Of a DNA stretch of 64,000 nt, positions 5,628-41,462 are shown piece by piece (position 1 is the first letter of the stretch; each line of letters begins with the position of its first letter). Made by a program: the position numbers and the translations under genes. Source of the stretch: a virus. The notes beneath the pieces are model-generated. The model searched no databases and was not told the origin of the DNA. It worked only from the letters and a program-made list of their open reading frames with translations. The stretch lies in IMG/VR virus record IMGVR_UViG_3300028610_001072, positions 1-64,000 of that record; one strand, 5' to 3'.

Positions 5628-5705
5628 TGGGGTGCAAGGGGGGAGTCGAACCCCCAATCTCTCGGGCCACAACCGAGTGGCTTTACCAATTTGCCCACAA
5701 GCACC
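5628..5705 (-). tRNA. tRNA-His (GTG), CCA encoded
   Basis: Reverse-complement folding gives an extra 5' G (G-1), a 7-bp acceptor, a GGC/GCC D stem, an anticodon stem CTCGG/CCGAG with loop TTGTGGC (anticodon GTG), and a T arm GGGGG-TTCGACT-CCCCC. C73 is followed by genomic CCA. G-1 opposite C73 is the histidine identity element, which supports the call. Oddity: positions 5:68 and 6:67 of the acceptor stem are U-U mismatches, so the tRNA may be partly decayed. It lies between terminase and small late genes. Confidence 0.88.
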
Positions 5706-5712
5706 ATAATTC

Positions 5713-7923
5713 TCATATTATCAGATTCCTTTTGGTTGTTACCTTGAGGTCGGCTCGGAGATCGGATTCCGTCTGCCCTAGATGCTGGTCAATATCCTGA
5801 GCAAGCTGCTCCATACCGCCGCTTATAAGTGATGTGCTCTGGGGAGTTACCTTACCGCTTCGCTCGATACCCAACTTTGCCATCCGGGAGTTGAGAGTAT
5901 TCACCCACTTGACCCAACTCTGGTAAAGCATATCCACCATTGGCTCTGACCATTTCACCTTGTACCGTGCCCTGAGCCAGATGCGCATCTCAGCATTATT
6001 GCTCGGTTTCTTCTGGTTGGTATCGACAAAATCTTTGTAGGCTATATCGAACAGGATTAGCATTTGATCCAGCTCTTTATCCACATCCTCTTCAGAGTCT
6101 TCCCCTACATCGATGCTGAGCCGCTTGCCTTGGTAGCCATACTGGCAGATCAGATTATTGCAGATCACGGTTGCGTCCCAGACATCCTTTGAACCACCAT
6201 CCGGGTGATCGATCTTGTGATTGCCCTCGAGAATGATTTGGTGCATTTCAGTTTGCAGTAGATCATGGTCCAGATACTCGACTGCATTATTCCATACCAG
6301 ATGCCGGAACAATCGCCCATAGAGTAGCTGCATTGCATTTGTGAATGATAGCCGCTCGCAATTACCCACTCCCACATCCAGCGCCTTTTGCCGGATGCTC
6401 TCTGTCTGGAAGCTGTCAAAGTGGAAGGCCCGGCTCCGGGGGAAATGATCCCGGAACATCTTCATCATAACATCTTCTACATTCATGTAGTCGATCCCCC
6501 AGCCCGGCTTCTTCGCTTCCCAAACAAGTATAATGTCGATCACCGGCCTGCAATCGATGGTGGTTTCCTTGACCTCTTCAATACCTTCCTTGGTGCGGAC
6601 ATGGTAAGTGAAGGTAGCCACGTCCCGGTCCATCTTTTCAGGGTAGCCGCCCACTATGACCAGCCGGTCCTTATTGATCGCATAGTCGCCGCCCCAGTAT
6701 CGGTCCCGATTATCTCCGACTACTTTCAGGAGCTCCAGTGCGGTGTATGGGACTCGCTTCGGCTCCCCCTTGACTACCTCGTCACGGTGGGTAATGACTT
6801 CCTTCACCTGCACCGGTGATACCAGTTTGGGATTGGCACAATCATTGATCTTGCCAAAGTGAGGCATGAAGAATCCAAATACATTCGGGGGAACTATGGC
6901 CCGCCAGCGGCGGTCGGCATCGATTGGGTCTTTCGCTCGATCCTCTTTATAGGCGGCCTTTTTCGCTTTCTGGTCCTTATTGTTGAATACATACGTTGCA
7001 TACCATGCAGTCAGCACACCGTTGACAATTTCCATCTTGTTCTCTTTCGGAGCCTTGGAATAATAGTCGAAGGTCTCCACCAACAGGTCATTCACTTCCT
7101 GCTCGGGATATGCGAACATTATGGTTAATCGGTGATGGGGATTTGTGAAGCGGGTTTTCTGGTTGGTGTAGGCAGTTTTATATTGATGAGCGGCCACTGC
7201 AAATTTGGCACTGGTATTGGCCCGGCTCGGTTCATCCTCGATGGTGATCCAGATCGTATAACCTTCAACTGATTTGGCCGTCGTATCCAAGCAGTACACC
7301 CGGATGTCTCCGTACAGGTCATTACGGTTGGGGATGATCATCTCTTTTTCTTTGATGTCCCCTTGGCCGAACTGCTTCAGCCTGAAGCCTTGGTGCTCTG
7401 CGAACCAGTTATTGCCGCTGATGGGATCGCGGGTCAACCTTATGATGTCCCCCAGCGATCTATAGAATACGTTTTTGGCCTGCTGGGCATTCACCTGTGA
7501 ATAGTTCAGGATGTCGAATGGCTCATTGTGGGCCAGTCCGAAATAACTATGTGGGTCTTCGAGGCAGCACCAGAGATATATCGCATACACTACGATCCGG
7601 GACACAGTGAAATTCTTTCCGCCACCTTGACCGATTTTCAGGATGGCCTGCTCGACTGCGAAAAACCATTTGGCTGGGTCCTTGCCGAATATCCCATTGA
7701 TGACTTTTTTCTGGGCCTCTGATAGTGATTTGGTGCCGATGAATGTTTCGATGAATTCAATAGGTCCGACGGGATCAGTGCGCCACAATCGGCCTGATCG
7801 CTCTTGGTACTCAGCCTCAGCCATACGGCCAGCTTCCCGCTCATAGAACGCCATCTCTTGCGGGAGCTCACTCGCTGATTGAGACAAGTTTGGTGAAGTA
7901 GGTGTCCTTGTTATTCCGTTCAT
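5713..7923 (-). CDS. terL: Terminase large subunit
   Basis: ATP-driven DNA packaging motor and headful/site nuclease. Walker A is GQGGGKNF (residues 98-105), and the Walker B and catalytic carboxylate region is WITIEDEPSRA (226-235). A second domain with WGGDYAINKDRLVIVGG and a later HKIDHPDGGSKDVWD motif matches the RNase H-like nuclease with spaced acidic residues. As given it overlaps the small-subunit gene by 56 nt; an internal ATG at 7854 (MAFYEREAG) would remove the overlap, and neither start has a strong ribosome site. At 736 residues it is long for the family but all core motifs are present. Confidence 0.93.
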   Translation of the reverse strand: MNGITRTPTSPNLSQSASELPQEMAFYEREAGRMAEAEYQERSGRLWRTDPVGPIEFIETFIGTKSLSEAQKKVINGIFGKDPAKWFFAVEQAILKIGQGGGKNFTVSRIVVYAIYLWCCLEDPHSYFGLAHNEPFDILNYSQVNAQQAKNVFYRSLGDIIRLTRDPISGNNWFAEHQGFRLKQFGQGDIKEKEMIIPNRNDLYGDIRVYCLDTTAKSVEGYTIWITIEDEPSRANTSAKFAVAAHQYKTAYTNQKTRFTNPHHRLTIMFAYPEQEVNDLLVETFDYYSKAPKENKMEIVNGVLTAWYATYVFNNKDQKAKKAAYKEDRAKDPIDADRRWRAIVPPNVFGFFMPHFGKINDCANPKLVSPVQVKEVITHRDEVVKGEPKRVPYTALELLKVVGDNRDRYWGGDYAINKDRLVIVGGYPEKMDRDVATFTYHVRTKEGIEEVKETTIDCRPVIDIILVWEAKKPGWGIDYMNVEDVMMKMFRDHFPRSRAFHFDSFQTESIRQKALDVGVGNCERLSFTNAMQLLYGRLFRHLVWNNAVEYLDHDLLQTEMHQIILEGNHKIDHPDGGSKDVWDATVICNNLICQYGYQGKRLSIDVGEDSEEDVDKELDQMLILFDIAYKDFVDTNQKKPSNNAEMRIWLRARYKVKWSEPMVDMLYQSWVKWVNTLNSRMAKLGIERSGKVTPQSTSLISGGMEQLAQDIDQHLGQTESDLRADLKVTTKRNLII

Positions 7924-9428: not shown

Positions 9429-9466
9429 GTCGATCCTTTCTTATTAACGTTGACTGGTGTTCATTA
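9429..9466 (-). repeat. Repeated gene-leader element, copy 2
   Basis: Minus strand: GAACACCAGTCAACGTTAA, then TAAGAAAGGATC before the GTG of the 83-residue gene. The end of the upstream gene (NTSQR stop) is encoded inside the element. Confidence 0.5.
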
Positions 9467-9776
9467 AACTCTTCTTCGATAAAATCTCTTCCACTTCCTG
9501 ATATGTTTTCGACTTCCGGCATGGCCTGCATGTTACCTGATCGAGATCGCTTAATTTCTCTGGCTCTCCCTTATCAGCTATTGATTCCCCGAAATCCATA
9601 TCGTCTGCAATTAGAGCCGATGCACAGGAGTCTCTGCCACAGCCGGTGATCCCCCCAATATTGAATAATTTACTCTCTTTTAGGGTATCAACCAGATGAT
9701 ACTTGGACATATCCGGCATCATGCCATACTTCATGCGGCCAGCCCATGCGATTATATAGAATCTTGGCTCATCCAT
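9444..9776 (-). CDS. Hypothetical zinc-binding-like protein (110 aa)
   Basis: Contains C-x4-C (GCGRDSCASA) and C-x2-C (TCRPCRKSKTY) about 35 residues apart, suggestive of one zinc site. The N terminus MDEPRFYIIAWAGR is hydrophobic but not a membrane helix. It overlaps the downstream end of the first paralogous helical gene by 8 nt. Function unknown. Confidence 0.65.
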   Translation of the reverse strand: MDEPRFYIIAWAGRMKYGMMPDMSKYHLVDTLKESKLFNIGGITGCGRDSCASALIADDMDFGESIADKGEPEKLSDLDQVTCRPCRKSKTYQEVEEILSKKSLMNTSQR

Positions 9777-10155
9777 TTTTCTGCCACCACATTAATGATT
9801 CTTCAGCCTTGGTTAATGCCAGTGCTCGCTCTCTGGTAGCGATCAATCTCCGTTCATCCTCTGAGAATGTTACAGCCTCTTGTATTTCATTCATCCGGGC
9901 GATCACTTTTTTAAGCAGGTCCTCTGGCTCTTCCCGGCCAACTATGGTGTTGATGAATGTCATCGCCCGCTTATTGATCGCCTCGTATGCAGGGCCGTCC
10001 AATAATGTCAGCAAGACCTTCAGATGATCCGCTGCTATTTTTGACACACCCGCCAGTTCAGCAATATCAAGCACCTCTGATAATTGAACCAGTGCTTCGT
10101 TGGCTATTTTAATAAACTCCCATTGGTCATTGATTAATTGTCGTGGCTTTTCCAT
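9769..10155 (-). CDS. Helical protein, paralogue of the 10155-10547 gene
   Basis: An all-helical 128-residue protein sharing its plan with its upstream neighbour: a RxxINDxxxxI start, a central AxxFIN..G.E.PE.LL..VIARMN block and a C-terminal ERALALTKAEESLMWW helix. The C-terminal helix resembles that of small phage proteins labelled Acb2/Tad1-hairpin (anti-CBASS/anti-Thoeris); this is a resemblance from memory, not a demonstrated match. It overlaps its paralogue by 1 nt, indicating tandem duplication. Confidence 0.7.
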   Translation of the reverse strand: MEKPRQLINDQWEFIKIANEALVQLSEVLDIAELAGVSKIAADHLKVLLTLLDGPAYEAINKRAMTFINTIVGREEPEDLLKKVIARMNEIQEAVTFSEDERRLIATRERALALTKAEESLMWWQKNG

Positions 10156-10547
10156 TATTTACCCAGTCCTTTCTCCAGCCAGAGTAATGATTCTTCAGCC
10201 TTGGTGATCGCTATTGCCCGCTCTCTCAGGCCCTTCTCCCTCTCTGGAATATCTGCTAGTGTGAGCTGTGAGGCGTTCATTGCGATGGCCTGATCTTTAT
10301 TCAACCGTGCAATTATATTTTCGAGCAACTGCTCTGGCTGTTCCTTCCCATAAACCATATTGACATATTCCAATGCACGGGCCGCGAGGATTGTATATCT
10401 CTCCCCGTGTAGTAGACTGCTCAGGGCTTCCCATTTGAAAGCCTGTTGCATTTCATCGTGATCCATTGAGACTATCGCGGTGTGTGTATCCTGAATCTCA
10501 CGGATCAGTTGATGCAGGTCATTGATAATGTCTCGGGGGTCTTCCAT
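10155..10547 (-). CDS. Helical protein, tandem paralogue of the 9769-10155 gene
   Basis: 130 residues. It aligns with the next gene through ALEYVNMVYGKEQPEQLLENI versus AMTFINTIVGREEPEDLLKKV and ERAIAITKAEESLLWLEKG versus ERALALTKAEESLMWWQKN. AGGAGAAA upstream is a good ribosome site. It is the first protein gene downstream of the interspaced guide array, in the same transcription direction. Function unknown; an anti-defence role is a weak inference from the C-terminal helix and the location. Confidence 0.7.
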   Translation of the reverse strand: MEDPRDIINDLHQLIREIQDTHTAIVSMDHDEMQQAFKWEALSSLLHGERYTILAARALEYVNMVYGKEQPEQLLENIIARLNKDQAIAMNASQLTLADIPEREKGLRERAIAITKAEESLLWLEKGLGK

Positions 10548-10583: not shown

Positions 10584-10592
10584 ACCTAATTT

Positions 10593-12350
10593 TATTCGCT
10601 TAGTACAAATGGGTTTCTATGGAATATTGGCTCGCTGTCAAATGTTGGTTTTCTTCTTGATTCCGGCTCACTTATCTCCTTTGGTTTGCTAAACTAGAAG
10701 TGGCTCACTTTGCGATTTGGGGTTGCTATCGATTTATGGTTCGCTGATGGTTGTTGGGTTCCTTAAAATCTATGGCTCACTCCCTTTAAATGGGTTACTA
10801 GGTTCGATTGGTACGCTATATATTATCGGGTTGCTTTTCTATGTATGGCTCGCTGATTACATTCGGGTTGCTCGATCATTCCGGCTCGCTGCTCTATATC
10901 GGGCTTCTAACTTTGCACGACTCACTTAACATCAATGGGTTTCTATTGATTACAGGTCCACTTGAGTTCATTTGGATTGCTTTGATGCTTTGATTCATTT
11001 GGTCACTTTGGATTGCTATATGTTATCGGTTCACTCATTTTGTTTGGTTTGCTTTCCGCCCGTTGGTTCACTCAAATACTTACGGGTTGCTCTCTGCCTT
11101 CGGTACACTCCACTAATATGGATTCCTTAAATCTTACGGTTCGCTGATATTTATTGGGTTGCTCATTTTACACGGCTCACTCAACTTATATGGATTCCTT
11201 AAACCTTACGGTTCGTTGTAGATCACTGGGATTCTCTTTCTGCCTGACTCGCTTTAAAATGATGGGTTCCTTGACCTTTCTGGCTCGCTACAATCGGATG
11301 GATTCCTTGATCGTGCTGGCTCACTTGTATTTTTTGGGTTGCTATTCCGGCTTGATTCACTTCTGCTTATTGGGTTGCTATTCATCAATGGTTCACTAAT
11401 AGGTAACGGGGCTACTTTTCATTTCCGGTTCACTCAATACTTACGGGTTACTTTCATGTGTTGGTTCACTTGTATGGAATGGATTCCTTTCATAGTCTGG
11501 TACACTGGACATGGCCGGGTTCCTCAGATTCATTGGCTCGCTACCATCGCAAGGGTTTCTTATCAAAATTGACTCACTTGGTTCCATTGGATTTCTCAAA
11601 ACATTTGGTACGCTGTTCGTTCTCGGATTTCTCAATATGACTGGCACACTTCCTTTTGTTGGATTACTGGGATCATGTGATTCGCTACTGTTTATTGGTA
11701 TCCTTATCTGTTATTGGCCCGCTAAACTAATCTGGATTCCTTTGACCTATCGGCCCACTTGCTGGAAACGGGTTGCTGGACTCTATCTCGGTACACTTCA
11801 TGGATTCGGGTTCCTATCCGATATTGGTTCGCCTTTAATACTATGGATTGCTTCTCTTGTTTGGCGCACTTCGTTTAGCATGGATTCCTGACACTACTTT
11901 GATCCGTTTGTTTTCAACGGGTTACTACCGAAGGGTGGCCCGCTTTAACGTTGTGGTTTTCTTAATGTTGTTGACTCACTTTAAGTTGTCGTTGTAATTG
12001 CATACCTTGATTCACTTCTCATCAATGGTTTCCTTGATGGGTATGGTTCGCTTTTAACTCCGGGTTACTTGGTTCCTTGGCTCACTCAACGATACTGGAT
12101 TCCTTGTCATAGTTGGTTCGCTACTTATTACCGGGTTGCTTGATTCGATTGACTCACTTATTCAAAACCGGGTTACTATTTAACGATGGTACGCTGTGCG
12201 TGTTTGGGTTTCTTTTTGACTACGCATCTTACTGGCTCGCTGTTGTTGATTGGGCTACTCAATTCAGTTGGCTCGCTGGCTTCAGTCGGGTTTCTTGTAC
12301 TTTCCGGCCCGCTGAACATTAATGGATGACTTTGATTAATCAGCGTTGCT
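10593..12350 (-). repeat. TIGR-type array: alternating short repeats with about 95 unique spacers, 36-nt period
   Basis: Two degenerate 8-nt motifs alternate along 1.76 kb. On the plus strand they read GGYTCRCT and GGRTTNCT; in the tas direction AGYGARCC and AGNAAYCC. By hand count there are 48 of each. About 80 of 95 gaps are exactly 10 nt; eleven are 11 nt, two 9, one 12 and one 20. The base before each GG on plus is nearly always T or C, so the unit is better seen as a 9-nt repeat plus 9-nt spacer, twice per 36 nt. Spacers are unique and the terminal repeats (10593, 12324, 12343) are degenerate. There is no continuous reading frame on either strand. This matches the published tandem interspaced guide RNA layout, whose transcripts are cut into 36-nt guides with two spacers. 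Orientation is inferred from the adjacent tas gene. Confidence 0.9.
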
Positions 12351-12458
12351 ATTTTTTCGGTTTCGCCGTGCCTTGATCCATCCATAGACTATCACAAGCA
12401 CTCCCGCGATCCATCCAATAATAGGCCCAATAATTAGTTCATGGTGGAGAAATGTCAT
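12336..12458 (-). CDS. 40-residue single-pass membrane protein coupled to tas
   Basis: The ATG overlaps the tas stop in an ATGA junction. The sequence starts MTFLHHELIIGP and continues as one hydrophobic helix (about residues 8-28, including GWIAGVLVIVYG), followed by a basic tail KARRNRKN, predicting N-out/C-in topology. It ends inside the degenerate first repeats of the array, so it sits exactly between tas and array. It could be an unrelated small holin-like or spanin-like protein, or a partner of the Tas system. It is too short for homology inference. Confidence 0.6.
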   Translation of the reverse strand: MTFLHHELIIGPIIGWIAGVLVIVYGWIKARRNRKNSNAD

Positions 12459-13351
12459 CCTACCTTCCGGTGCTCATCCAATCCCAGTTTCTCAACATGG
12501 TAAGGCTTCGATACCGGCAGACCTTCCAACTGTCTCCACTTAACATAGAGATCAATCAGGAATATCTTCACCATCTTGCGGATCGCCATCGCATGACGGT
12601 GCCCCGGCTTCTCCTCTTCACCATAAACCGGATGACTCTCCAGCCGGTGCTTCTCATTCTCATAGATGTCGGCATATATCGAGCCGGTTCTCAGGAATGA
12701 TGGCCCCAACACACCAATCAATTTAGTCTTTAACAATGGGTTGAAGGTGATCGAATTGCGCTTGGCGGGTTTTTTGTTCTTATCTATATAATCCACTTCA
12801 ACCAAGTGGTTTTTGGTGCGATTGCGTCCCTTACCATCGGGAACTGTGCAACGCTTGGGATCGGTTGCCACATCAAGACCGGCATAAGCCCATAACGATG
12901 ATGGATAATCAGCCTTGTAGATGTCGAACTCACTGATAATGATGGCCCCCATTGCCGGACCAACCCCCACAACCTTTTCCAAGAACTTGGTCCAGAGGGG
13001 GAAAGCTACCAATTCCTTTCCCAGTCCCCGGAACTGGCGCTCTTCCTGCTTCAGCAGGTCAAGGTAATGCCCTATAAGTGTCATCTCTGAGTCTGTGGAG
13101 ATTATGCCCTCGCCTTCCGGGTCCAGTGTGACCACGCCGTCCGTGATCCGGGTATATTCCTTGCGGAGCTTCCCCAGCAGACTTTGCTTTTTCTTATCAG
13201 ACAGGTCTTTTTCCTTGGTGCCGGGATCAATCCCCAGCTTCACTTTAAAATTACCAACCAGCCTATTTCCCATCTGGATGCGTAACTCCTGAATGTCATA
13301 GGTCCCTCTGACCATTGACCTTAATAATTCCCAACTTCTTCCACGTTTCAT
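12455..13351 (-). CDS. tas: Tas-like protein (TIGR-associated, Nop/IS110 C-terminal fold, no nuclease domain)
   Basis: 298 residues with an AGGAGA ribosome site. Residues 117-165 carry the signature shared by IS110-family C-terminal (Transposase_20) domains and Tas proteins: EKVVGVGPAMGAIIISEF, then SLWAYAGLDV. The C terminus has HRHAMAIRKMVKIFL, then LYVKWRQLEG, and Y285 in SKPYH. The helical N-terminal 115 residues lack the DEDD catalytic domain of IS110 transposases, and no HNH or RuvC motif is present. No IS ends or target duplications flank it. With the 36-nt interspaced array directly downstream, the best reading is a nuclease-less Tas that binds processed guides and DNA. Established: the Nop-domain Tas/TIGR family. 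Inferred: this protein's guide binding. An IS110 transposase annotation would be misleading. Confidence 0.87.
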   Translation of the reverse strand: MKRGRSWELLRSMVRGTYDIQELRIQMGNRLVGNFKVKLGIDPGTKEKDLSDKKKQSLLGKLRKEYTRITDGVVTLDPEGEGIISTDSEMTLIGHYLDLLKQEERQFRGLGKELVAFPLWTKFLEKVVGVGPAMGAIIISEFDIYKADYPSSLWAYAGLDVATDPKRCTVPDGKGRNRTKNHLVEVDYIDKNKKPAKRNSITFNPLLKTKLIGVLGPSFLRTGSIYADIYENEKHRLESHPVYGEEEKPGHRHAMAIRKMVKIFLIDLYVKWRQLEGLPVSKPYHVEKLGLDEHRKVG

Positions 13352-13378: not shown

Positions 13379-13561
13379 TCAAATTTTTCCTCTCCCGATA
13401 CAGGTGGGACATGCTAACTCTTTTCCGTCCCGCTTGATTGAGCGATCCCCCTTGCACTCCGGGCATATCTTGGTTGGCCGATGCTCTCCCAGCATTTCAT
13501 CAACCTCAGTCTGCATTTCGTCAAGTTGCCGCTGGAGCCTGTCGAGATGGGATTCGCTCAT
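13379..13561 (-). CDS. Small DnaJ-type zinc-finger protein (60 aa)
   Basis: An N-terminal amphipathic helix (residues 5-25, heptad-like LDRLQRQLDEMQTEVDEM) is followed by two C-x2-C-x-G-x-G-like halves: CPECKGDRS and CPTCIGRGK. This is one zinc centre of the DnaJ cysteine-rich domain. It lacks a J domain. It lies directly upstream of tas with a 27-nt gap. Role unknown; similar mini-fingers are frequent in phage operons. Confidence 0.75.
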   Translation of the reverse strand: MSESHLDRLQRQLDEMQTEVDEMLGEHRPTKICPECKGDRSIKRDGKELACPTCIGRGKI

Positions 13562-13564
13562 TTC

Positions 13565-13738
13565 TTATTGCTTCACTATGTATAATGTAATCGAGGACCC
13601 AAATATATACAGGACCACGGCACCAAAAATGTAGGGCAGGTCCGTGTACCACGGCTTCCCTAATTCTACCGCTACTCCCATTATCCAAATCAGGTATGGT
13701 ACGAAAACTGCTACTACTGCTCGCTCCATGAAATTCAT
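13565..13738 (-). CDS. Small two-helix membrane protein (57 aa)
   Basis: Start at ATG 13738 (MNFMERAV), chosen because GGAG lies 6 nt upstream; the earlier TTG at 13750 would overlap that ribosome site. Two hydrophobic segments (about residues 5-22 and 34-55), separated by a short polar turn, predict a helical hairpin. Size and topology fit a holin, but there is no lysis gene beside it; the transglycosylase is at 29 kb. Confidence 0.65.
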   Translation of the reverse strand: MNFMERAVVAVFVPYLIWIMGVAVELGKPWYTDLPYIFGAVVLYIFGSSITLYIVKQ

Positions 13739-13752
13739 ACGGCGCTCCAATT

Positions 13753-14100
13753 TTAATTAATACTGCTGTACCGCCATTCCCACTTATGAGCCATATCCCA
13801 CCACGGACCTTCGCCGCCAGTTCGCTCGGTGATGATTAAATCATCGCCGTAGAGGCCAGTTGTGGCCTGATCATCAACCTTGGAGATTTTGGTTCTCCTG
13901 TCCCGAAGGATGATACACCTGTCTGCATCAGGTTTTTTCAGGACGCTGTGCCAAGGGGCATCGTGCCATTTACCCCCGCCTCTCAATTCCTGATTGTTCT
14001 CCCAGTATTGAGCCTTGTGGCATCGGGTACATTGCCTTTGCATTGCAGCGTCCCTTGAGAATTCCATCCACTTGTGCTTGACTATACATAACCATTTCAT
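13753..14100 (-). CDS. Hypothetical protein with zinc-knuckle motif (115 aa)
   Basis: N-terminal CTRCHKAQYW (C-x2-C) with an upstream Cys/His pair (LCIVKHKW) resembles a short treble-clef found in small phage proteins. The C terminus is tryptophan-rich (GPWWDMAHKWEWRY). It overlaps the upstream gene by 4 nt. Function unknown. Confidence 0.68.
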   Translation of the reverse strand: MKWLCIVKHKWMEFSRDAAMQRQCTRCHKAQYWENNQELRGGGKWHDAPWHSVLKKPDADRCIILRDRRTKISKVDDQATTGLYGDDLIITERTGGEGPWWDMAHKWEWRYSSIN

Positions 14101-14591
14101 TGTCCGATACCTTCCTTCACTGTTGCGATCCTCTTCAATGTAAGTTTGTCATGCTCCAGATAATAGCCGTGCAGCTCTTCAATCTCCGTCAGCAACTCGA
14201 GCAACGTGGTGATGTCCGCCTGCTGGCTTTCAATCTTCGTCGCCTGTGTCTGGGAATACTCCGGGAGTACCAGTTCCCCTATCTTATTGACCATCCATTC
14301 CCAAGGATTAGCCTGTGCTGCGGTCTCGTCAAATATATCCATGACCTTCTTTTTCAGACCAACCTGACCGCCCTTGGTCAGCATCTCTTCCAGTGCCACA
14401 CCCTTCCGGCCCAACTCAATTGTTTCGGCCATCTCGGTCATTGCATGTTGGTAGATGTCAGCTTGGATACCGGCTTTCACGAAGTCTGCTCTTGGCACGT
14501 TAAATATTGTTGTCTCAATGGCTTCCATGAGTATCCGCCCTACCTCAGCGGCTATGTGGTCACTTTGGGCTGGCAATTTCAGATTTCCCAT
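14097..14591 (-). CDS. Hypothetical helical protein (164 aa)
   Basis: Start at 14591 (MGNLKLPAQ), supported by GAGG upstream; the longer in-frame version runs back through the neighbouring gene. Mostly helical with a C-terminal coiled-coil-like region (TTLLELLTEIEELHGYYLEH). No recognised family. Confidence 0.7.
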   Translation of the reverse strand: MGNLKLPAQSDHIAAEVGRILMEAIETTIFNVPRADFVKAGIQADIYQHAMTEMAETIELGRKGVALEEMLTKGGQVGLKKKVMDIFDETAAQANPWEWMVNKIGELVLPEYSQTQATKIESQQADITTLLELLTEIEELHGYYLEHDKLTLKRIATVKEGIGQ

Positions 14592-14793
14592 TTTGTACCT
14601 CGTTTTTGTTGCGGAGAACTGTCTCCGCATTTTTTATATCCCGTGATATTCGCAATCGCCGCCGCATTCTTGAATGTTTTCCCTTGGCAACAATTAACCG
14701 TTCCCCCAAAATAGATCGACATAGAGGACTGATTGTATCTTTAGCAAGTGACCCCTCGATTATCAGTATTATTTCCTGCTCAATGATTATCAT
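14560..14793 (-). CDS. Possible small basic protein (77 aa)
   Basis: A plausible ORF filling a 240-nt space, with a GAGG-containing leader. A hydrophobic N terminus (MIIIEQEIILIIEG) is followed by an Arg/Lys-rich body (RMRRRLRISRD). It overlaps the next gene by 32 nt. It could be a chance ORF. Confidence 0.42.
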   Translation of the reverse strand: MIIIEQEIILIIEGSLAKDTISPLCRSILGERLIVAKGKHSRMRRRLRISRDIKNAETVLRNKNEVQNGKSEIASPK

Positions 14794-14837
14794 CTGCTTT
14801 TATCCTCTTCCCACCCCCCCCCTCAGCAGCTACGTGA

Positions 14838-15095
14838 TCACTTTGCTGGGGGAGTTTGAGATTCATTGGATGATTCTCCGCCTAGCATTAGAACATTGGG
14901 CTTGATGCCTGTCATTTTCGCATAGTCCATTTCCAATTTGAGGGTGGAAATAACCTTTCCGGTCGCATTGGTGATGGCATTGATCGCTGCTGGTGAGGTT
15001 TTGCCACTCCGTAGATTCTCGATTTCCTCAAGTAGAATACTGCGCAGATCGTTGATTGTTTTGACTTCCTGTACTTTAACTTCGTTGTCAGGCAT
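14838..15095 (-). CDS. Hypothetical small helical protein (85 aa)
   Basis: Start at 15095 (MPDNEVKV), chosen for GGGAGG upstream. Two helices around a KTSPAAINAITNATGKVIS segment. Similar short proteins occur next to phage zinc-finger/HNH-like genes, but I cannot name the family. It overlaps the upstream zinc-ribbon gene by 8 nt. Confidence 0.68.
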   Translation of the reverse strand: MPDNEVKVQEVKTINDLRSILLEEIENLRSGKTSPAAINAITNATGKVISTLKLEMDYAKMTGIKPNVLMLGGESSNESQTPPAK

Positions 15096-15756
15096 TGTGT
15101 GCCTCCCTTGCTTCTCGTTTAAGCTGCGTGTGCAGCATTTGAATCTCAACTAATTCGTCAGGGACTTCAGACCTCTTTAGTGTGGTGTGCCTAGTAAGAA
15201 TACCCCTCGCACTGGTTGTCCCTTTGGGGTACATCCTCATCGCTATTGTCCTACACGGTATAGAGCAGTATTTCCCCCTATCTTTCTGCTTTCCCAGCCC
15301 ACTAACGGACCACCTTCTCCAAAAGAATTGACCACAAATTTGACAATTCCCCCTGACAAGCGTGGGTTGCTCTGGTGCGCATTTAGCACATTTGGGTGAG
15401 CAGTATATTCTCTTGTCAATTCCATATCTAATACCTTTTGTAATATTTCTTATTGGTCCACCACACCGCAGGCACCGAAACGCTGCGATCTTTTTATCAA
15501 TTACCGCCATTTGACACTCTCGAGAACAATGCGTTGCAGTGTAGCTGTTTGATCTTAGTTCAGGTGTATCGGCATGACGACCGCAATTACTACAACGCCA
15601 AGCGTTTCTCCGAGCGCCTAATCCCTTCCTTCTACATGCTATCGAGCAGTATTTGGTAGTCGCAACAATGGCTGGGTTTACTCGGAAGGCGATCCCACAC
15701 TGGATACAAATTTTATTCGGTGGTTTCACGATGTACAACACGGTGCTTGAGGGCAT
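15088..15756 (-). CDS. Multi-zinc-ribbon protein (four treble-clef-like units)
   Basis: 222 residues with four repeated C-x2-C ... C-x3-C modules: CIQCG/YCSIAC, CSNCG/HCSREC, CLRCG/YCSPKC and CQICG/YCSIPC. They are spaced about 35-50 residues apart. The basic C-terminal 50 residues are helical. Such fingers resemble the DNA-binding ends of homing endonucleases, but no HNH or GIY-YIG catalytic motif is present. A nucleic-acid-binding adaptor is the best guess. Confidence 0.75.
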   Translation of the reverse strand: MPSSTVLYIVKPPNKICIQCGIAFRVNPAIVATTKYCSIACRRKGLGARRNAWRCSNCGRHADTPELRSNSYTATHCSRECQMAVIDKKIAAFRCLRCGGPIRNITKGIRYGIDKRIYCSPKCAKCAPEQPTLVRGNCQICGQFFWRRWSVSGLGKQKDRGKYCSIPCRTIAMRMYPKGTTSARGILTRHTTLKRSEVPDELVEIQMLHTQLKREAREAHNA

Positions 15757-15772
15757 GCAGTACGGCCCATAC

Positions 15773-16180
15773 TTATCCCTTTACCTCACACCATTGTTCG
15801 CCGTCCCATTCCCAGCCGTTAGTCACTACCCAAGCATAAGGCATGATCCACGGCTCTTTAAATAATATCTCTGCAATTATTGTCTGGTAGGGAAATCTGC
15901 CATTGGCGGTCTCGTCCCATCCAATGAACTTCGAGTATATTCCGATTAATACCTTGCCGAATATATGCCATTCATTTATCGGCTCTGGTAATTTCGCGGC
16001 ATGGTTGCGATCCGTCGTCCAATCGAATTCATGGGCCACCGCTCCCTTGCATACTTCGCAGATCATTACCTCGGGATCATTCTTATCCCAATCTACTGGA
16101 CCGGGTTCACACTCGCATATTGTGTATCCGAGTATCTTGGCGATCTGGAGATTAATCTGCTGCGGTGTCGGCCATTTCAT
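15773..16180 (-). CDS. Hypothetical protein, possible phage ABA-sandwich fold
   Basis: Start at 16180 (MKWPTPQQ) behind GAGTGAGA; the longer ORF would overlap the preceding gene. The LQIAKILGY helix, the DWTTDRNHAAKLPEPI segment and the C-terminal WEWDGEQW faintly resemble phage ABA-sandwich proteins that pair with aspartate/asparagine-rich partners. ICEVCKG gives one C-x2-C. Low certainty on family. Confidence 0.62.
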   Translation of the reverse strand: MKWPTPQQINLQIAKILGYTICECEPGPVDWDKNDPEVMICEVCKGAVAHEFDWTTDRNHAAKLPEPINEWHIFGKVLIGIYSKFIGWDETANGRFPYQTIIAEILFKEPWIMPYAWVVTNGWEWDGEQWCEVKG

Positions 16181-16182
16181 TG

Positions 16183-16401
16183 TTATCTCACTCTCTTGTA
16201 TTCGTACATTGTCCAACCAGCCTTCATTAATTCGCTTGCGGTAGCTACAAATTCGTGCAAGTTATCCTTGTTGAAAATGAACTCGGGGGAACTCTTCTGT
16301 ATCTCAGTAGTCCATAGTTGCTTTTCATCCGGCCCATACGATACTAATATCCCCTGACTGTTATGTAGCCCGTAAAGCGTGTCCACTGCTGGAGTTGCCA
16401 T
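16183..16401 (-). CDS. Hypothetical small protein (72 aa)
   Basis: Unrecognised beta/alpha protein; the middle reads LVSYGPDEKQLWTTEIQ. It overlaps the preceding gene by 41 nt and ends 2 nt before the next start. No motif. Confidence 0.6.
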   Translation of the reverse strand: MATPAVDTLYGLHNSQGILVSYGPDEKQLWTTEIQKSSPEFIFNKDNLHEFVATASELMKAGWTMYEYKRVR

Positions 16402-16582
16402 TGTTTACCACCTTCCCTTTATCGATGAACATAGGGCAATCATTCAGCCCCCTGTAAAATTTATCCCAGTTCCGATGCTCACTCAGCGGCGGTGTGCTCC
16501 TGTAGCAATTCTCCTGAAGGTGACAGGCTTCCGCTAAGCAGCCGGTGATATTCGCCAGTGATCTATGCTTTACTTCGGCCAC
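16361..16582 (-). CDS. Hypothetical Cys-rich small protein (73 aa)
   Basis: Contains CLAEACHLQENC and a later DCPMF, four cysteines that could bind a metal. It overlaps its downstream neighbour by 41 nt and its upstream neighbour by 13 nt. Confidence 0.6.
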   Translation of the reverse strand: MAEVKHRSLANITGCLAEACHLQENCYRSTPPLSEHRNWDKFYRGLNDCPMFIDKGKVVNNGNSSSGHALRAT

Positions 16583-16680
16583 GGTGAGTTATTCCTTTTG
16601 ATTTCACCCTCGCAATCGAGTCCATCCTGTGCAGCTTTCGCTCCCAATTGAACCAGCCTGTAAATTCCTGCCATAATCAT
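16570..16680 (-). CDS. Very small protein (36 aa)
   Basis: ATG at 16680 with GGGAG upstream; an alternative start is at 16674. Short helix MAGIYRLVQLGAKAAQDG, then a polar tail ending SPWPK. It overlaps the next start by 13 nt. Supported only by its ribosome site and packing in the operon. Confidence 0.45.
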   Translation of the reverse strand: MIMAGIYRLVQLGAKAAQDGLDCEGEIKRNNSPWPK

Positions 16681-16692
16681 ACTCCCTTATTG

Positions 16693-17319
16693 TTAATCGC
16701 TCTGGGTGAATGTCCTCAAAGCAGACGTACTCCCATATCTCCGGTCCCGCCGATCTGTTTTCATTATTGGATGATGCCATGTCTCGGTTTTACAATGATG
16801 GCACCAGACTACTCTGCATTCGGTGGGATGTTCAGCTATAAACTTGCTCCCAAAGTTGTGGCACCACTCACAGAGCCATGAAGTTATTGTCGTCCTGCGC
16901 TCCTCTGGTGGATCGATTGCCGCAATCTTGATGTCGTCTCTACTGCACACAAAATCCTTCATTTCCCGCGCTCTCCGATCTATGTACCGGCGGTAGGGGC
17001 TGTATTCCATGAAATACTGCGGATCACAGCCTTCCCGGATCGGTACGATGCGATCCCTGCCGGTGCGCTTTGTCATCATCCGCCTGACTGGCATCTCAGT
17101 CTCCGGGTCCCAGTTCTCTATGACATCACCCATCGATGAAAATCTGCTGACCCCTGATTTCATATCAGTACAGTGCCTGCACAGTCGCTTGTTGGCATAG
17201 CCTGCTGATCCCTTATTCGTTACCCGATGACCACACTCCAGAGTATCCACAATATTGAATGCACCAGCGGATGTGCGCTCTGGTCGGTAGGTCCGTGTGC
17301 TGACTACTTTTCTAAGCAT
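16693..17319 (-). CDS. Hypothetical zinc-binding protein (208 aa)
   Basis: Start at 17319 (MLRKVVSTRTY) with AGGGGC upstream. Two cysteine clusters: LECGH with RLCRHC near the N terminus, and WLCEWCHNFG with VWCHHCKTETWHH in the C-terminal quarter. Arg-rich throughout. Likely binds nucleic acid through zinc modules. No catalytic motif recognised. Confidence 0.68.
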   Translation of the reverse strand: MLRKVVSTRTYRPERTSAGAFNIVDTLECGHRVTNKGSAGYANKRLCRHCTDMKSGVSRFSSMGDVIENWDPETEMPVRRMMTKRTGRDRIVPIREGCDPQYFMEYSPYRRYIDRRAREMKDFVCSRDDIKIAAIDPPEERRTTITSWLCEWCHNFGSKFIAEHPTECRVVWCHHCKTETWHHPIMKTDRRDRRYGSTSALRTFTQSD

Positions 17320-17330
17320 TTCGGTGCCCC

Positions 17331-17720
17331 TTATAGGTCGTTGCCGTTGATGATGTTCCAAGTTATCTGCAACTCTCTGAGAGCTGCCCGCGCTTTTTCG
17401 GTATCGCAAAATGATGATACCATCTCCCCCTTGATCTGACTCATCCGGGATTCAATATGTTTCTTGGTCCTGTCCATAAGTTCCAACTGGCCCTCGTTAT
17501 GAACCTGCGCCATAGTTCTGTGCGGCTCATCGCCCGGCAGTGAAGTGATTCGACCTGTCTCTGCCAGTTCCATAACCGGCTTAATTTCGTTCATCGTATC
17601 TTTATAGAATTGATCCCCCACTGGGCCTAATGGACCCTTCTGGGATGCAACAGCAACCTTATCAATGAGGCCACTGATTATCTGACCCACGGCCAGCACT
17701 GTTTTGTTATTTTTTTCCAT
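17331..17720 (-). CDS. Hypothetical helical protein (129 aa)
   Basis: No recognised domain. An N-terminal helix (TVLAVGQIISGLIDK) and a C-terminal helix rich in charged residues flank a polar loop. It sits between two recognisable genes in the accessory operon. Confidence 0.65.
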   Translation of the reverse strand: MEKNNKTVLAVGQIISGLIDKVAVASQKGPLGPVGDQFYKDTMNEIKPVMELAETGRITSLPGDEPHRTMAQVHNEGQLELMDRTKKHIESRMSQIKGEMVSSFCDTEKARAALRELQITWNIINGNDL

Positions 17721-37940: not shown

Positions 37941-40900
37941 TCATAGAATCTCTACGGCTGCTCCACCATCGACGGATATTACATGGATTGTGGTGTCAGC
38001 CACTTCCTGCAATACCGGGACATGGGTGATGTAGAAGAACTGGCCGAACTCAGCTCCCAGCTTCTCAATCATGCGGCGGGCCAGCAATAGATTGGGTGGA
38101 TCAAATGCCCCCCAGCCCTCGTCGAATATGCAGTGATTGATTGTTACGCCGGTGGCTTCGGCCTGAATCTTTGCCATAGCCGCCCTGAGTGAATAGCCGA
38201 TGGCTACCCGTTGGAAGCCGGACGCTTCGCTCAGTGGATGATTACCACGATCATCATTGAACGTGATCACGACTTCATCCTTTTCCTTCCCGTCTTGAGT
38301 ATCCTTAATTGGATCGATCTTGACCCGCAATGCTGAATCGAATCCTTCATCCACACATAGGAACTCATTAGCGAATTCCGCGAAACGTGGCAGGGATTTC
38401 TCCATCAGCAAATAAGGTATCCCATCCCGGCTGACTGCGGCCAAGTAATGTACGAAAGCGTTGATCCGGGACAGCCCTGATCTGTTGGTCTCTTCCAGCC
38501 CCCCAAGGTCAGCTCGAATTCCATCCAGTCGCTCGAGGCTCTGCTTCAGTGCTCCAATTTGACCAACCACACTATCGCGCTGAGTTTCAATACTCGTAAT
38601 GTTGGTGCTCAGGCTATCCACGGAGAGCGATAGGGTAGCTGTATCCACGGCTTCACCCATCGCTGCCAACTTGGAAATTACCTGAGCGAGATCGGTGTTC
38701 AGCTTATTCAGGTTGGATTGGGCATTCTTCAATTCGGTATCGGCCACAAGGACCTTTGCCTGAACATCATCCCAATTCTGCTCTTTCTCTTTATTGAGAT
38801 CGAAGCGCAACGTCAAAATCTCGGTTTTGGCAGTGTCGTACTGGGTTTGGTTGATCTCATGGGTAGTCTGCCGGGCATTGATCTGCTCAGTCAGTTCAGT
38901 GATCTCGGTATCAACCTTAGCCTTGGCATTAGCCTGTTGCTTGATGACCCGATCATTTTCGGAATGATCAGGGGGGTTGGCTACCAAATCATCATGGGTC
39001 TGCTTTAATGTGACCATTTCAGCTTTGGCCTCGTTGGCATTCTTCAGCAGCTTGCATTCGCTCTGGATGTCCATGCCAATACAGGGGACCTCAGCGGTTA
39101 GTGCAGCGGTCTCTTCAGCCCCTATAACAGCAAGGTTCGCCGCACTGACTTGATTCCGATGCTGCTCATCGGCGTTATTTTTCTGATTTTGAATGGCATC
39201 GATACCCCCTTGGTGATTCGTGGATGCGGTCTGAAGGCCATTGCGTTGGGTGAGCAGGGTAGTCTGTTCGGTGCTGAACTCCTGCATCAAGTTGGCTAGC
39301 TCAGTTTGAAGTTCCTGTTGAGTATCGTGCTTGGATTGGAGATCGGCTTGCCGCTGGATACCAGCAGTGACCTGATCCTTTTTTGATAGGATGCTGGTCA
39401 GGCTGACAATCGATGTTGAGGTTGTCCCGACTGATCCTTCGAGTTCTGCTTTCTGGGTCTCCAGTGCAGTGCGATCATCCGTGATCTTTCGAGCGTCATC
39501 TATCTTGCGCTGAGCTTTAGTCCGTTGGGTACGCAGGGTTTCGATTTGCTCAACCTTTTGATCCTTGGACTCACCGAGCTGGGTCATTGATTTCCTGATG
39601 TCGGCTTCCTGCTCCAACTCAGTTTGCAGGTTCTCCATTTTCATGGTGACATTTTCATAATCACCACGGAGAGCCTTCAACTGATTCTCAGCGGCTTTGC
39701 GCCGAAGATCAAAGGCAGTGAAGTTCATAGCTTCTTGAAGAGTTTCCTTCATCTCAGATGGTGATAGGCCACACAGGCGATCAATATCCTGCTGTGATCC
39801 AAATCGGGTTGACCGATACATATTGTAGCTGCCTACCAGTTTCTCAAGAGATATTTGGGTTTCTTTGGAATCGCCCTCATTCATTGGTTCCCAGCTCTCA
39901 CCAACTTTCTTACTGAGGGTGATCACGCTGCTGGCTTTCTCCCCCGTCTTATCCAGCTTTAAGGTTCGACTGGCCCGGTACTGCACAGCCGTCTCGTTCT
40001 GCTCACTGGCTGTAAACCAACTCGTTACCACTGTATCTGTGCAGCCAAGCCGGACAGCCGTATTGAGCTGGCTCCCCTTGCGGAGTTTCTTCCAGTTGAC
40101 AAAACGTTCCAGTTCAGCCACCTGCGATTTACCGACGTGGTTGAGGCCGGTGATGCAGATAATGCTGCCCAGCTCATCAAAGTTGATGTCCACATCGATC
40201 AGCGGCTTGAAATTCACCCCCTTGATTCGCTGGAGCTTATAGTTGACCCCCTGAAGTTGATGGAGCACATCTGGGGGAATGTTGGCGGCCACTGCCTGAT
40301 TGATCTCTTTCATCAGTGGGAGACTGGCCGCTCGATCCTCGTCCAGCTCTGACCATATTGTGAGCATGTCATCCATGCCGCCTTCGGCGTTCAGTTTTTC
40401 TGCCCGGATGCGGATTGGGTCCACGGTATCAACCATTACCTTATGACTGTGGACTTCGCGCTTATCCAGCATTCCCTCAATCATCGGGATGTCTATCAAG
40501 CTGCGCCGCTCGCTGGCGATTTCGATCCGTACCCGGACCTTGGCATCCTTGATTGCAATTGGCTCGATGGCCTTGAATACCACATCCACCGGGTCAACAT
40601 TGAGATCGCTGAAACTTTCCTTGGGAACTTCCACCGTCAACATCTGGTGGGCCACCGGGATTTCAACAGGCACATGCTGCCCGGCTACGAGGTCCCAGAG
40701 CTCGAAACTGGGGATCATCTTTTCCTGTCCGAAAGTCATGGGTGCCGGTGCGCCGCTGTAGACTATTGATCCTACGCTCTGGCGCTTATGCAGATGGCCG
40801 TACATCACAGCATCAAAGTGATCACCTATCCAGTGCCGGTCGATGACCAGATCATTCTCAGCCGTGAGGACTTTCTCGCTATCGGCCACACCGCCGTTGA

Positions 40901-41462
40901 CCGTGCCATGCCCTACCAAGATCGGTATCTTGCCATTTGCCTTGAGTTCACCGGCCTCGACAGAGATTGCCAGTAAGATAGCTTCCATCTTTTTGGTCAG
41001 CTCTGCATCAACGTTGCGGGGTTCCACTTCATCGGTCTTCGCCAGATAAAGGTATTTGGACGGATGAGGCAAGGTGAAAAATCGTACATCTGGTAATTCA
41101 GGGCTAACAAGTAGCCCCGGCTTTGAACTTATCAATAGCCGATCATGCAGTGTTGGTACATCCGTTTTTAATCGCGCCAGTAGCCCCGTCACGGCATCAA
41201 CCCGGTCATAGCGGTTAGATAGGTCGTGATTGCCCGGTATTACGATTGTAGGGGCAATCTCAGCACATCTGAGTACGCTCTCACGGATAATCAGAGCTTC
41301 CTGTGGGGATATGATTCCCCGCTTCATTATCAGATCGCCAGCTATTACAATGGCTTCTGGTTTGATGTCCTCAGCCTGTGCGACTATGAAGTCGATGGCG
41401 GGACCAATTACGTCGGCCAAGGCATCGGTAAAATGCCAGTCAGCCGTATGTAGTATTCTCAT
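37941..41462 (-). CDS. sbcCD: Fused Mre11-Rad50 (SbcD-SbcC) nuclease/ATPase
   Basis: One 1173-residue chain joins two proteins normally encoded separately. Residues 1-340 are the SbcD phosphoesterase: ADWH (7-10), AGDL (41-44), GNHD (77-80), GHG (184-186) and GHLH (222-225), all metal ligands. From 408 the Rad50 ATPase begins with Walker A GLNHVGKS (439-446), then about 550 residues of coiled coil. The C-terminal lobe has a diverged signature SEASGFQRVAIG and Walker B NHCIFDEGWG, then FYITHV. A canonical CxxC hook is not seen; the coil apex has PCIGMDIQSEC. DNA-end processing in phage recombination is likely. Confidence 0.88.
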   Translation of the reverse strand: MRILHTADWHFTDALADVIGPAIDFIVAQAEDIKPEAIVIAGDLIMKRGIISPQEALIIRESVLRCAEIAPTIVIPGNHDLSNRYDRVDAVTGLLARLKTDVPTLHDRLLISSKPGLLVSPELPDVRFFTLPHPSKYLYLAKTDEVEPRNVDAELTKKMEAILLAISVEAGELKANGKIPILVGHGTVNGGVADSEKVLTAENDLVIDRHWIGDHFDAVMYGHLHKRQSVGSIVYSGAPAPMTFGQEKMIPSFELWDLVAGQHVPVEIPVAHQMLTVEVPKESFSDLNVDPVDVVFKAIEPIAIKDAKVRVRIEIASERRSLIDIPMIEGMLDKREVHSHKVMVDTVDPIRIRAEKLNAEGGMDDMLTIWSELDEDRAASLPLMKEINQAVAANIPPDVLHQLQGVNYKLQRIKGVNFKPLIDVDINFDELGSIICITGLNHVGKSQVAELERFVNWKKLRKGSQLNTAVRLGCTDTVVTSWFTASEQNETAVQYRASRTLKLDKTGEKASSVITLSKKVGESWEPMNEGDSKETQISLEKLVGSYNMYRSTRFGSQQDIDRLCGLSPSEMKETLQEAMNFTAFDLRRKAAENQLKALRGDYENVTMKMENLQTELEQEADIRKSMTQLGESKDQKVEQIETLRTQRTKAQRKIDDARKITDDRTALETQKAELEGSVGTTSTSIVSLTSILSKKDQVTAGIQRQADLQSKHDTQQELQTELANLMQEFSTEQTTLLTQRNGLQTASTNHQGGIDAIQNQKNNADEQHRNQVSAANLAVIGAEETAALTAEVPCIGMDIQSECKLLKNANEAKAEMVTLKQTHDDLVANPPDHSENDRVIKQQANAKAKVDTEITELTEQINARQTTHEINQTQYDTAKTEILTLRFDLNKEKEQNWDDVQAKVLVADTELKNAQSNLNKLNTDLAQVISKLAAMGEAVDTATLSLSVDSLSTNITSIETQRDSVVGQIGALKQSLERLDGIRADLGGLEETNRSGLSRINAFVHYLAAVSRDGIPYLLMEKSLPRFAEFANEFLCVDEGFDSALRVKIDPIKDTQDGKEKDEVVITFNDDRGNHPLSEASGFQRVAIGYSLRAAMAKIQAEATGVTINHCIFDEGWGAFDPPNLLLARRMIEKLGAEFGQFFYITHVPVLQEVADTTIHVISVDGGAAVEIL

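What the first reader, a model, noticed from the sequence alone, without database searches (positions are those of the whole stretch)
10593..13351. Phage-encoded TIGR-Tas-like system: interspaced guide array beside a nuclease-less Nop/IS110-fold protein
Seen: two alternating degenerate 8-9-nt repeats with unique 9-10-nt spacers, about 48 pairs, 36-nt period, starting about 100 nt downstream of a 298-residue gene on the same strand. Seen: that protein has the GVGPAMGA and YAGLD signatures of IS110 C-terminal/Nop-like domains and no catalytic domain. Established: TIGR-Tas systems of phages pair such Tas proteins with arrays processed into 36-nt, two-spacer guides that direct DNA binding. Inferred: this locus is a TIGR-Tas member acting on rival phages, plasmids or host DNA, and would be missed as an IS110 transposase plus spurious ORFs.
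Basis: partly seen in the sequence, partly recalled or inferred. Interest (0 to 1): 0.97.

Follow-up and report, generated by a model that had tools for sequence, protein, structure and literature searches.

The report
Phage TIGR-TasA guide-RNA array system
A tailed-phage genome carries an intact RNA-guided DNA-binding system of the recently described TIGR-Tas kind: one nuclease-less Tas protein next to 48 tandem two-spacer guide units, whose ends are held together by base pairs that change in step along the array; the system type is known, but comparing about 190 such arrays also shows an unreported link between the two spacers of each guide that bears on how they read their target.

Summary
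On the minus strand, 48 edge repeats (AGYGARYCR) alternate with 48 loop repeats (AGNAAYCCR), mostly with 9-nt spacers and a 36-nt period, starting 124 nt after an intact 298-aa gene. The protein is a Tas: it matches solved TasR (E=2e-16) and TasH, and its predicted fold matches TasR, TasH, IS621 and, weakly, Nop5. It lacks TasR's N-terminal RuvC region, so it is TasA-type. Position 6 of each edge pairs with position 3 of the next edge in 47/47 cases (22 G-C, 23 A-U, 2 G-U), the tigRNA end pairing seen in TasR, here tested unit by unit. About 190 IMG/VR tas loci carry the same array type. The locus is therefore a new member of a known kind.

No target was found: no hit with at most one mismatch in the phage's own 101 kb, and no excess in 1.9 Mb of related loci. 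So the proposed action on rival phages or plasmids is not shown.

New: over 1,641 non-redundant units, the last bases of spacers A and B are Watson-Crick complementary far more than swapped pairs (620 vs 432 expected; 86 of 95 informative arrays; window alone P=2e-5). This suggests that in part of the units both spacers read one shared central base pair.

The parts
12455..13351 (-). tasA: 298-aa Tas protein (Nop/IS110 C-terminal fold with coiled coil), no RuvC or HNH domain
   Evidence: phmmer to 9mty (TIGR-TasR) E=2.3e-16 and 21kl (TasH) 5e-9; profile search 1.6e-26 and 4.7e-19; AF2 pLDDT 83.6, Foldseek top hits TasR 1.9e-9, TasH 4.7e-9, then IS621 and Nop5; query residue 18 aligns to TasR residue 122, so the ~105-residue N-terminal RuvC region is absent
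12336..12458 (-). 40-aa ORF between tasA and the array, start overlapping the tasA stop (ATGA), one hydrophobic stretch; reality uncertain
   Evidence: Sequence and translation; weak DUF2273 / phage membrane-protein matches; not found in relatives
10592..12331 (-). TIGR array: 48 edge (AGYGARYCR) and 48 loop (AGNAAYCCR) repeats, 9-nt spacers, 36-nt modal period; ends in a truncated edge AGCGAA at 10600
   Evidence: autocorrelation, segmentation, edge_i pos6 / edge_i+1 pos3 covariation 47/47, frame-breaking spacings
12332..12352 (-). array leader: partial first unit (candidate spacer, no intact first edge)
   Evidence: Sequence; Faure et al. describe a 5' truncated first edge; weak here
11110..11217 (-). 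diverged unit duplication: guides TAAGGTTTA/TATAAGTTG (edge 11217) and TAAGATTTA/TATTAGTGG (edge 11145); similarity runs from mid-edge to mid-edge

Best explanation
This is a phage-borne TIGR-TasA system. tasA and the array lie on one strand and are probably co-transcribed. The TasA dimer binds the pre-tigRNA, which is cut in the middle of each edge repeat into ~36-nt tigRNAs: half-edge, spacer A, loop, spacer B, half-edge. Each tigRNA is closed by a pair between edge position 6 at its 5' end and position 3 of the next edge at its 3' end, on top of the box C/D-type pair 7-2. The ribonucleoprotein binds double-stranded DNA, with spacer A on one strand and spacer B on the other, over about 17-18 bp, and bends it. 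With no nuclease, the likeliest effect is silencing or exclusion by occupancy of foreign DNA (competing phages, plasmids or host loci). Shown here: the anatomy, the homology, the covarying end pairs, the absence of a nuclease domain and of near-perfect own-genome targets. Inferred from the TasR/TasH/TasA experiments of Faure et al. 2025 (PMC12045711): processing, DNA binding, two-strand geometry. Conjecture: foreign-DNA silencing as the role (about 0.5). The confidence below is for the TIGR-TasA identification and guide anatomy.
For: Tas homology by sequence and fold. Array far above chance. Edge_i pos6 / edge_i+1 pos3 pairs in 47/47, MI 0.79 vs 0.295 best of 100,000 permutations, while no other edge position pair tested, up to three edges apart, exceeds 0.29. 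This is the edge-repeat base pair of the TasR structure (PMC12045711). The same pair is G-C, A-U or G-U in 3238 of 3316 junctions of 189 arrays. Array RNA is less structured than shuffles (z=+3.1), as expected for guides. Reading frame is broken by 34, 37, 38 and 44-nt spacings. No own-genome target with at most 1 mismatch. One tas in this genome, no ParB-like or nuclease neighbour recognised next to it. Purine skew of spacers A and B is anticorrelated within units (r=-0.079, P=0.003) but not between neighbouring units, the sign expected if A and B read opposite strands of one natural DNA stretch.
Against: No target found, so the biological role is untested. No 36-nt RNA evidence. No terminator-like site seen on the minus strand after the array. 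First edge not recognisable. Spacer-pair statistics are weaker than natural coding DNA would give, so many units may not match one contiguous coding target.
Confidence: 0.9

Rival explanations
1. The array regulates the phage's own genes: guides bind the phage genome and time its transcription.
For: TasA has no nuclease, so self-binding would not be lethal; a regulatory role is among those suggested in PMC12045711.
Against: Own 101-kb genome: 0 sites with at most 1 mismatch; 1 with 2 mismatches against 0.58 expected from swapped pairs; with 1-bp overlap the best is 2 mismatches.
Confidence: 0.08
2. RNA targeting, as in box C/D snoRNPs: guides bind host or phage RNA.
For: Nop fold and box C/D-like motifs; weak fold match to archaeal Nop5.
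Against: TasR cut DNA but not RNA substrates (PMC12045711); no fibrillarin-like partner recognised among the neighbours tested; spacers A and B of one unit are linked statistically, as expected of a joint double-stranded target. Not tested directly here.
Confidence: 0.08
3. IS110-type transposase with spurious repeats.
For: Pfam Transposase_20 (E=0.09, below cut-off) and PHROG 4285 'transposase'.
Against: No N-terminal catalytic domain; TasR/TasH match the model far better than IS621; 36-nt arrays accompany most relatives.
Confidence: 0.01
4. The repeats are a translated repeat protein (36 nt = 12 codons).
For: Period divisible by 3 and several open frames of 60-126 aa.
Against: No ORF spans the array; 34/37/38/44-nt spacings shift the frame; conservation is at RNA base-pair level across units.
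Confidence: 0.01
5. TasA bends target DNA to help phage integration or segregation rather than to silence competitors.
For: Suggested in PMC12045711 from the 180-degree bend in TasR and from tasA-parB operons.
Against: No ParB-like gene in the immediate neighbourhood; 48 different guides are many for one integration site. The whole genome was not screened for integrases.
Confidence: 0.08

Closest known systems
TIGR-TasA, dual-repeat type (Faure et al. 2025, PMC12045711; Flavonifractor plautii FpTIGR)
   Same: Solo Nop-domain protein, adjacent dual-repeat array, 9-nt spacers, 36-nt units, phage location.
   Different: 48 units against most often 5-15 reported; edge closing pair mixed about half G-C, half A-U within one array; 40-aa ORF between gene and array.
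TIGR-TasR (PDB 9mty)
   Same: Best sequence and fold match; edge-repeat end pairing; box C/D-like pair.
   Different: Lacks the ~105-residue N-terminal RuvC; repeats start AG and end CC[A/G], not UG...CCA; spacer A and B 3' ends covary, which the TasR paper did not see.
TIGR-TasH of Salicola phage CGphi29 (PDB 21kl, 9w04)
   Same: Fold, array type, edge AGCGAGCCA and loop AGACAACCA.
   Different: No HNH domain here.
IS110/IS621 bridge-RNA recombinases
   Same: Nop-like RNA-binding C-terminal domain (Foldseek 3.6e-3).
   Different: No DEDD domain, no bridge RNA; long array instead.

Membership tests
TIGR-Tas | Tas protein with Nop domain | tested here: met
TIGR-Tas | Array of two alternating 8-12-nt repeats with ~9-nt spacers next to the gene | tested here: met
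TIGR-Tas | Edge repeat half-sites pair across one tigRNA (covariation) | tested here: met
   47/47; 3238/3316 junctions in 189 arrays
TIGR-Tas | Box C/D-type pair within repeats | tested here: met
   Loop 2-7 is G-C in 46/47; edge pos7-next pos2 is C-G or U-G in 44/47, U-A in 1 and C-A in 2
TIGR-Tas | Truncated edges at both array ends and a terminator | tested here: inconclusive
   3' end truncated (AGCGAA); 5' end unclear; no terminator-like site after the array
TIGR-Tas | Processing to 36-nt tigRNA | not testable with these tools
   Needs RNA data
TIGR-Tas | tigRNA-guided DNA binding | not testable with these tools
   Needs biochemistry; no natural target found
TasA subtype | No HNH or RuvC nuclease domain | tested here: met
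TasR | N-terminal RuvC | tested here: not met
   alignment
TasH | N-terminal HNH | tested here: not met
IS110 transposase | N-terminal DEDD RuvC-like domain plus C-terminal domain | tested here: not met
   Only sub-threshold Transposase_20 over residues 123-161; TasR/TasH fit the model better
tasParB operon subtype | ParB-like gene in operon with tasA | tested here: not met
   Neighbours tested in 9444-10547 and 13379-17409 show no ParB match

The most novel reading that the evidence does not exclude
In TasA systems the two spacers of a tigRNA overlap by one base pair at the centre of the target, giving a 17-bp site whose middle pair is read on both strands, and units are born from one contiguous DNA site. 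This would explain why the last bases of spacers A and B are Watson-Crick complementary (A-T 220 vs 153, T-A 256 vs 182, G-C 74 vs 48, C-G 70 vs 49), with G-U disfavoured, in 86 of 95 informative arrays including this one. The alternative, an RNA-RNA pair at the figure-eight crossover, would normally tolerate G-U.
Probability: 0.4. Interest if true: 0.72.

Novelty: new member of a known kind. Interest (0 to 1): 0.5.

Why it matters
It adds a complete, apparently intact TIGR-TasA locus with 48 guides in a tailed phage, and shows that tasA modules like it are common in environmental viruses but hidden under 'transposase' labels. Its edge pairs switch between G-C and A-U along one array, strong evidence from sequence alone that the unit of function and inheritance runs from mid-edge to mid-edge. 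The spacer-end covariation gives a testable rule for how the two guides meet on the target, and a sharper pattern with which to look for natural TIGR targets, which remain unidentified.

Tried and rejected
Own-genome targeting with gaps 0-2 and with 1-bp overlap: no site with at most 1 mismatch, no excess at 2. Targets in tas-flanking DNA of relatives (0.76 Mb, then 1.9 Mb): no excess over swapped pairs. The 13 near-matches at overlap 1 against 5.2 expected collapse to about 7 distinct sites, and the swap control is unfair at that register. Two guides scanned against all of IMG/VR with gaps -1 to 2: 16 hits spread evenly over the four registers for a window guide, which is chance; 13 for a marine guide, mostly in two registers but from a few repeated contigs, and too few to claim. 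Coding 3-periodicity between spacers A and B: no register stands out, so a purely coding contiguous origin is not shown, and the complementary-end units do not show the phase predicted by overlap (z=0.67 where I estimated about 2.5). Compensatory double changes at the spacer ends in homologous units: none among 95 pairs, so neither reading is favoured. Conserved gene neighbourhood across relatives: none. Plasmid homologues: none. PADLOC and Rfam: nothing. Structure of the Acb2/Tad1-like neighbour: pLDDT 47, useless. Second array elsewhere in the genome: none convincing.

Full report
WHAT IS THERE. The window is 64 kb of a 101.5-kb virus record. A terminase large subunit at 5713-7923 and portal, minor head and terminase small subunit matches mark a tailed phage; the host is not known. 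On the minus strand, a 298-aa gene (12455-13351) is followed after 124 nt by 48 edge and 48 loop repeats of 9 nt, alternating, with mostly 9-nt spacers. Self-match at lag 36 is 0.456, against at most 0.319 in shuffles. The region is not coding: no ORF spans it and edge-to-edge spacings of 34, 37, 38 and 44 nt break the frame. The RNA is less structured than shuffles.

THE PROTEIN. It matches the solved TIGR-TasR (9mty, E=2.3e-16) and TasH (21kl, 5e-9) by sequence, more strongly as a 29-member profile. An AlphaFold model (pLDDT 83.6) finds TasR and TasH first, then IS621 and, weakly, Nop5. Its residue 18 aligns with TasR residue 122, so the RuvC region is absent; no HNH is present. This is the TasA architecture. 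Public families would call it a transposase.

THE EDGE PAIR. In the TasR structure (PMC12045711), bases of the two half-edges of one processed tigRNA pair. If that holds here, position 6 of edge i must pair with position 3 of edge i+1. It does in 47 of 47: 22 G-C, 23 A-U, 2 G-U. The mutual information, 0.79 bit, exceeds all of 100,000 permutations (maximum 0.295), and no other edge position pair, within one edge or up to three edges apart, comes near. Most relatives fix one type; this array uses both about equally, in no order different from random. This identifies AGYGARYCR as the edge, fixes the unit as mid-edge to mid-edge, and argues that the array is under selection as RNA.

RELATIVES. 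Three scans of IMG/VR gave over 200 loci (some contigs recur); 189 arrays passed a quality cut, with a median of 17 edges and a maximum of 82. The window's 48 is in the top few per cent. Edge_6/next edge_3 is G-C, A-U or G-U in 3238 of 3316 junctions. Neighbouring genes are not conserved, so the module moves among phages. Eight bacterial MAG contigs also carry a relative. Where tas genes are 93-98% identical, only about half of the units are shared, in the same order, with gains and losses inside the array and end units often kept; this differs from CRISPR's growth at one end. That comparison was made by eye on about a dozen pairs.

TARGETS. From the published rules, the target reads [spA][0-2 bp][rc spB]. 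The phage's own genome has no such site with at most 1 mismatch. Related loci show no excess over swapped pairs, and two whole-IMG/VR scans gave no interpretable hits. The natural targets therefore remain unknown, as in the original paper.

AN UNREPORTED LINK BETWEEN THE SPACERS. Among all 81 position pairs of spacers A and B, only the two last bases covary strongly: they are Watson-Crick complementary (z=12.8). Over 1,641 non-redundant units, 620 are complementary against about 432 expected; 86 arrays lie above expectation and 9 below (P=7e-17); in the window alone 22 of 43 against 11.2 expected, P=2e-5. The signal repeats in two separately fetched halves and is absent between neighbouring units. 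G-U is disfavoured (coefficient -0.27 +/- 0.11). It was found by scanning many statistics, but its size and replication make chance unlikely. The simplest reading is that in a part of the units (about a fifth overall, a third here) both spacers read one shared central base pair. The authors of the TasR study saw no obvious covariation and judged overlap unlikely. Against the reading: the coding-phase signal predicted by overlap is missing, and homologous units do not show that complementary ends resist change. An RNA-RNA pair at the crossover remains possible. In addition, the purine skews of A and B (last base left out) are anticorrelated within units (r=-0.079, P=0.003; natural adjacent DNA gives -0.13) and not across units, as expected if the two read opposite strands of one stretch.

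HOW IT LIKELY WORKS. Shown: anatomy, homology, covarying ends. Inferred from the published TasA/TasR/TasH experiments: processing to ~36 nt and two-strand DNA binding. Conjecture: silencing or exclusion of foreign DNA by occupancy.

LIMITS. No RNA data, no host, no metagenome scan; E-values and z-scores for the spacer link come from post-hoc analysis; array parsing is automatic, and one window unit near 12241 is irregular. No paper held in the library reports the spacer-end covariation, but subscription papers and preprints were not searched.

Noticed in passing
window 9769-10155 and 10155-10547 (minus): Two tandem paralogous genes (39% identical) just downstream of the array have C-termini like the Acb2/Tad1 hairpin domain (Pfam E=0.001 and 0.009, below cut-off; the second also aligns weakly with solved Tad1, E=0.18), hinting at anti-CBASS/anti-Thoeris sponges next to the TIGR array. 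The fold prediction failed.
   Followed up: partly
window 12336-12458 (minus): 40-aa ORF with one hydrophobic stretch, start overlapping the tasA stop codon; absent from relatives.
   Followed up: partly
L010/L011, L034/L038, L049/L052/L054 and others: Closely related TIGR arrays keep unit order and often the end units but gain and lose units throughout the interior, unlike CRISPR growth at one end.
   Followed up: partly
189 IMG/VR arrays; window 10592-12331: Last bases of spacers A and B of the same unit are Watson-Crick complementary more than chance.
   Followed up: yes
L248, L249, L260: Three related viral contigs hold an exact 18-bp gap-0 site for a marine TIGR guide (GAAGGACAT/TCCTTACGA of L049); about one such group is expected by chance.
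   Followed up: partly
window 37941-41462 (minus): 1173-aa protein with an N-terminal calcineurin-like phosphoesterase domain and a weak C-terminal SMC/RecN match, like an SbcD-SbcC fusion.
   Followed up: no
window 15088-15756 (minus): 222-aa multi-zinc-ribbon protein matching phage HNH endonuclease PHROG 1271 over residues 14-88.
   Followed up: no
window 5628-5704 (minus): A single tRNA-His gene just after the terminase large subunit gene.
   Followed up: no
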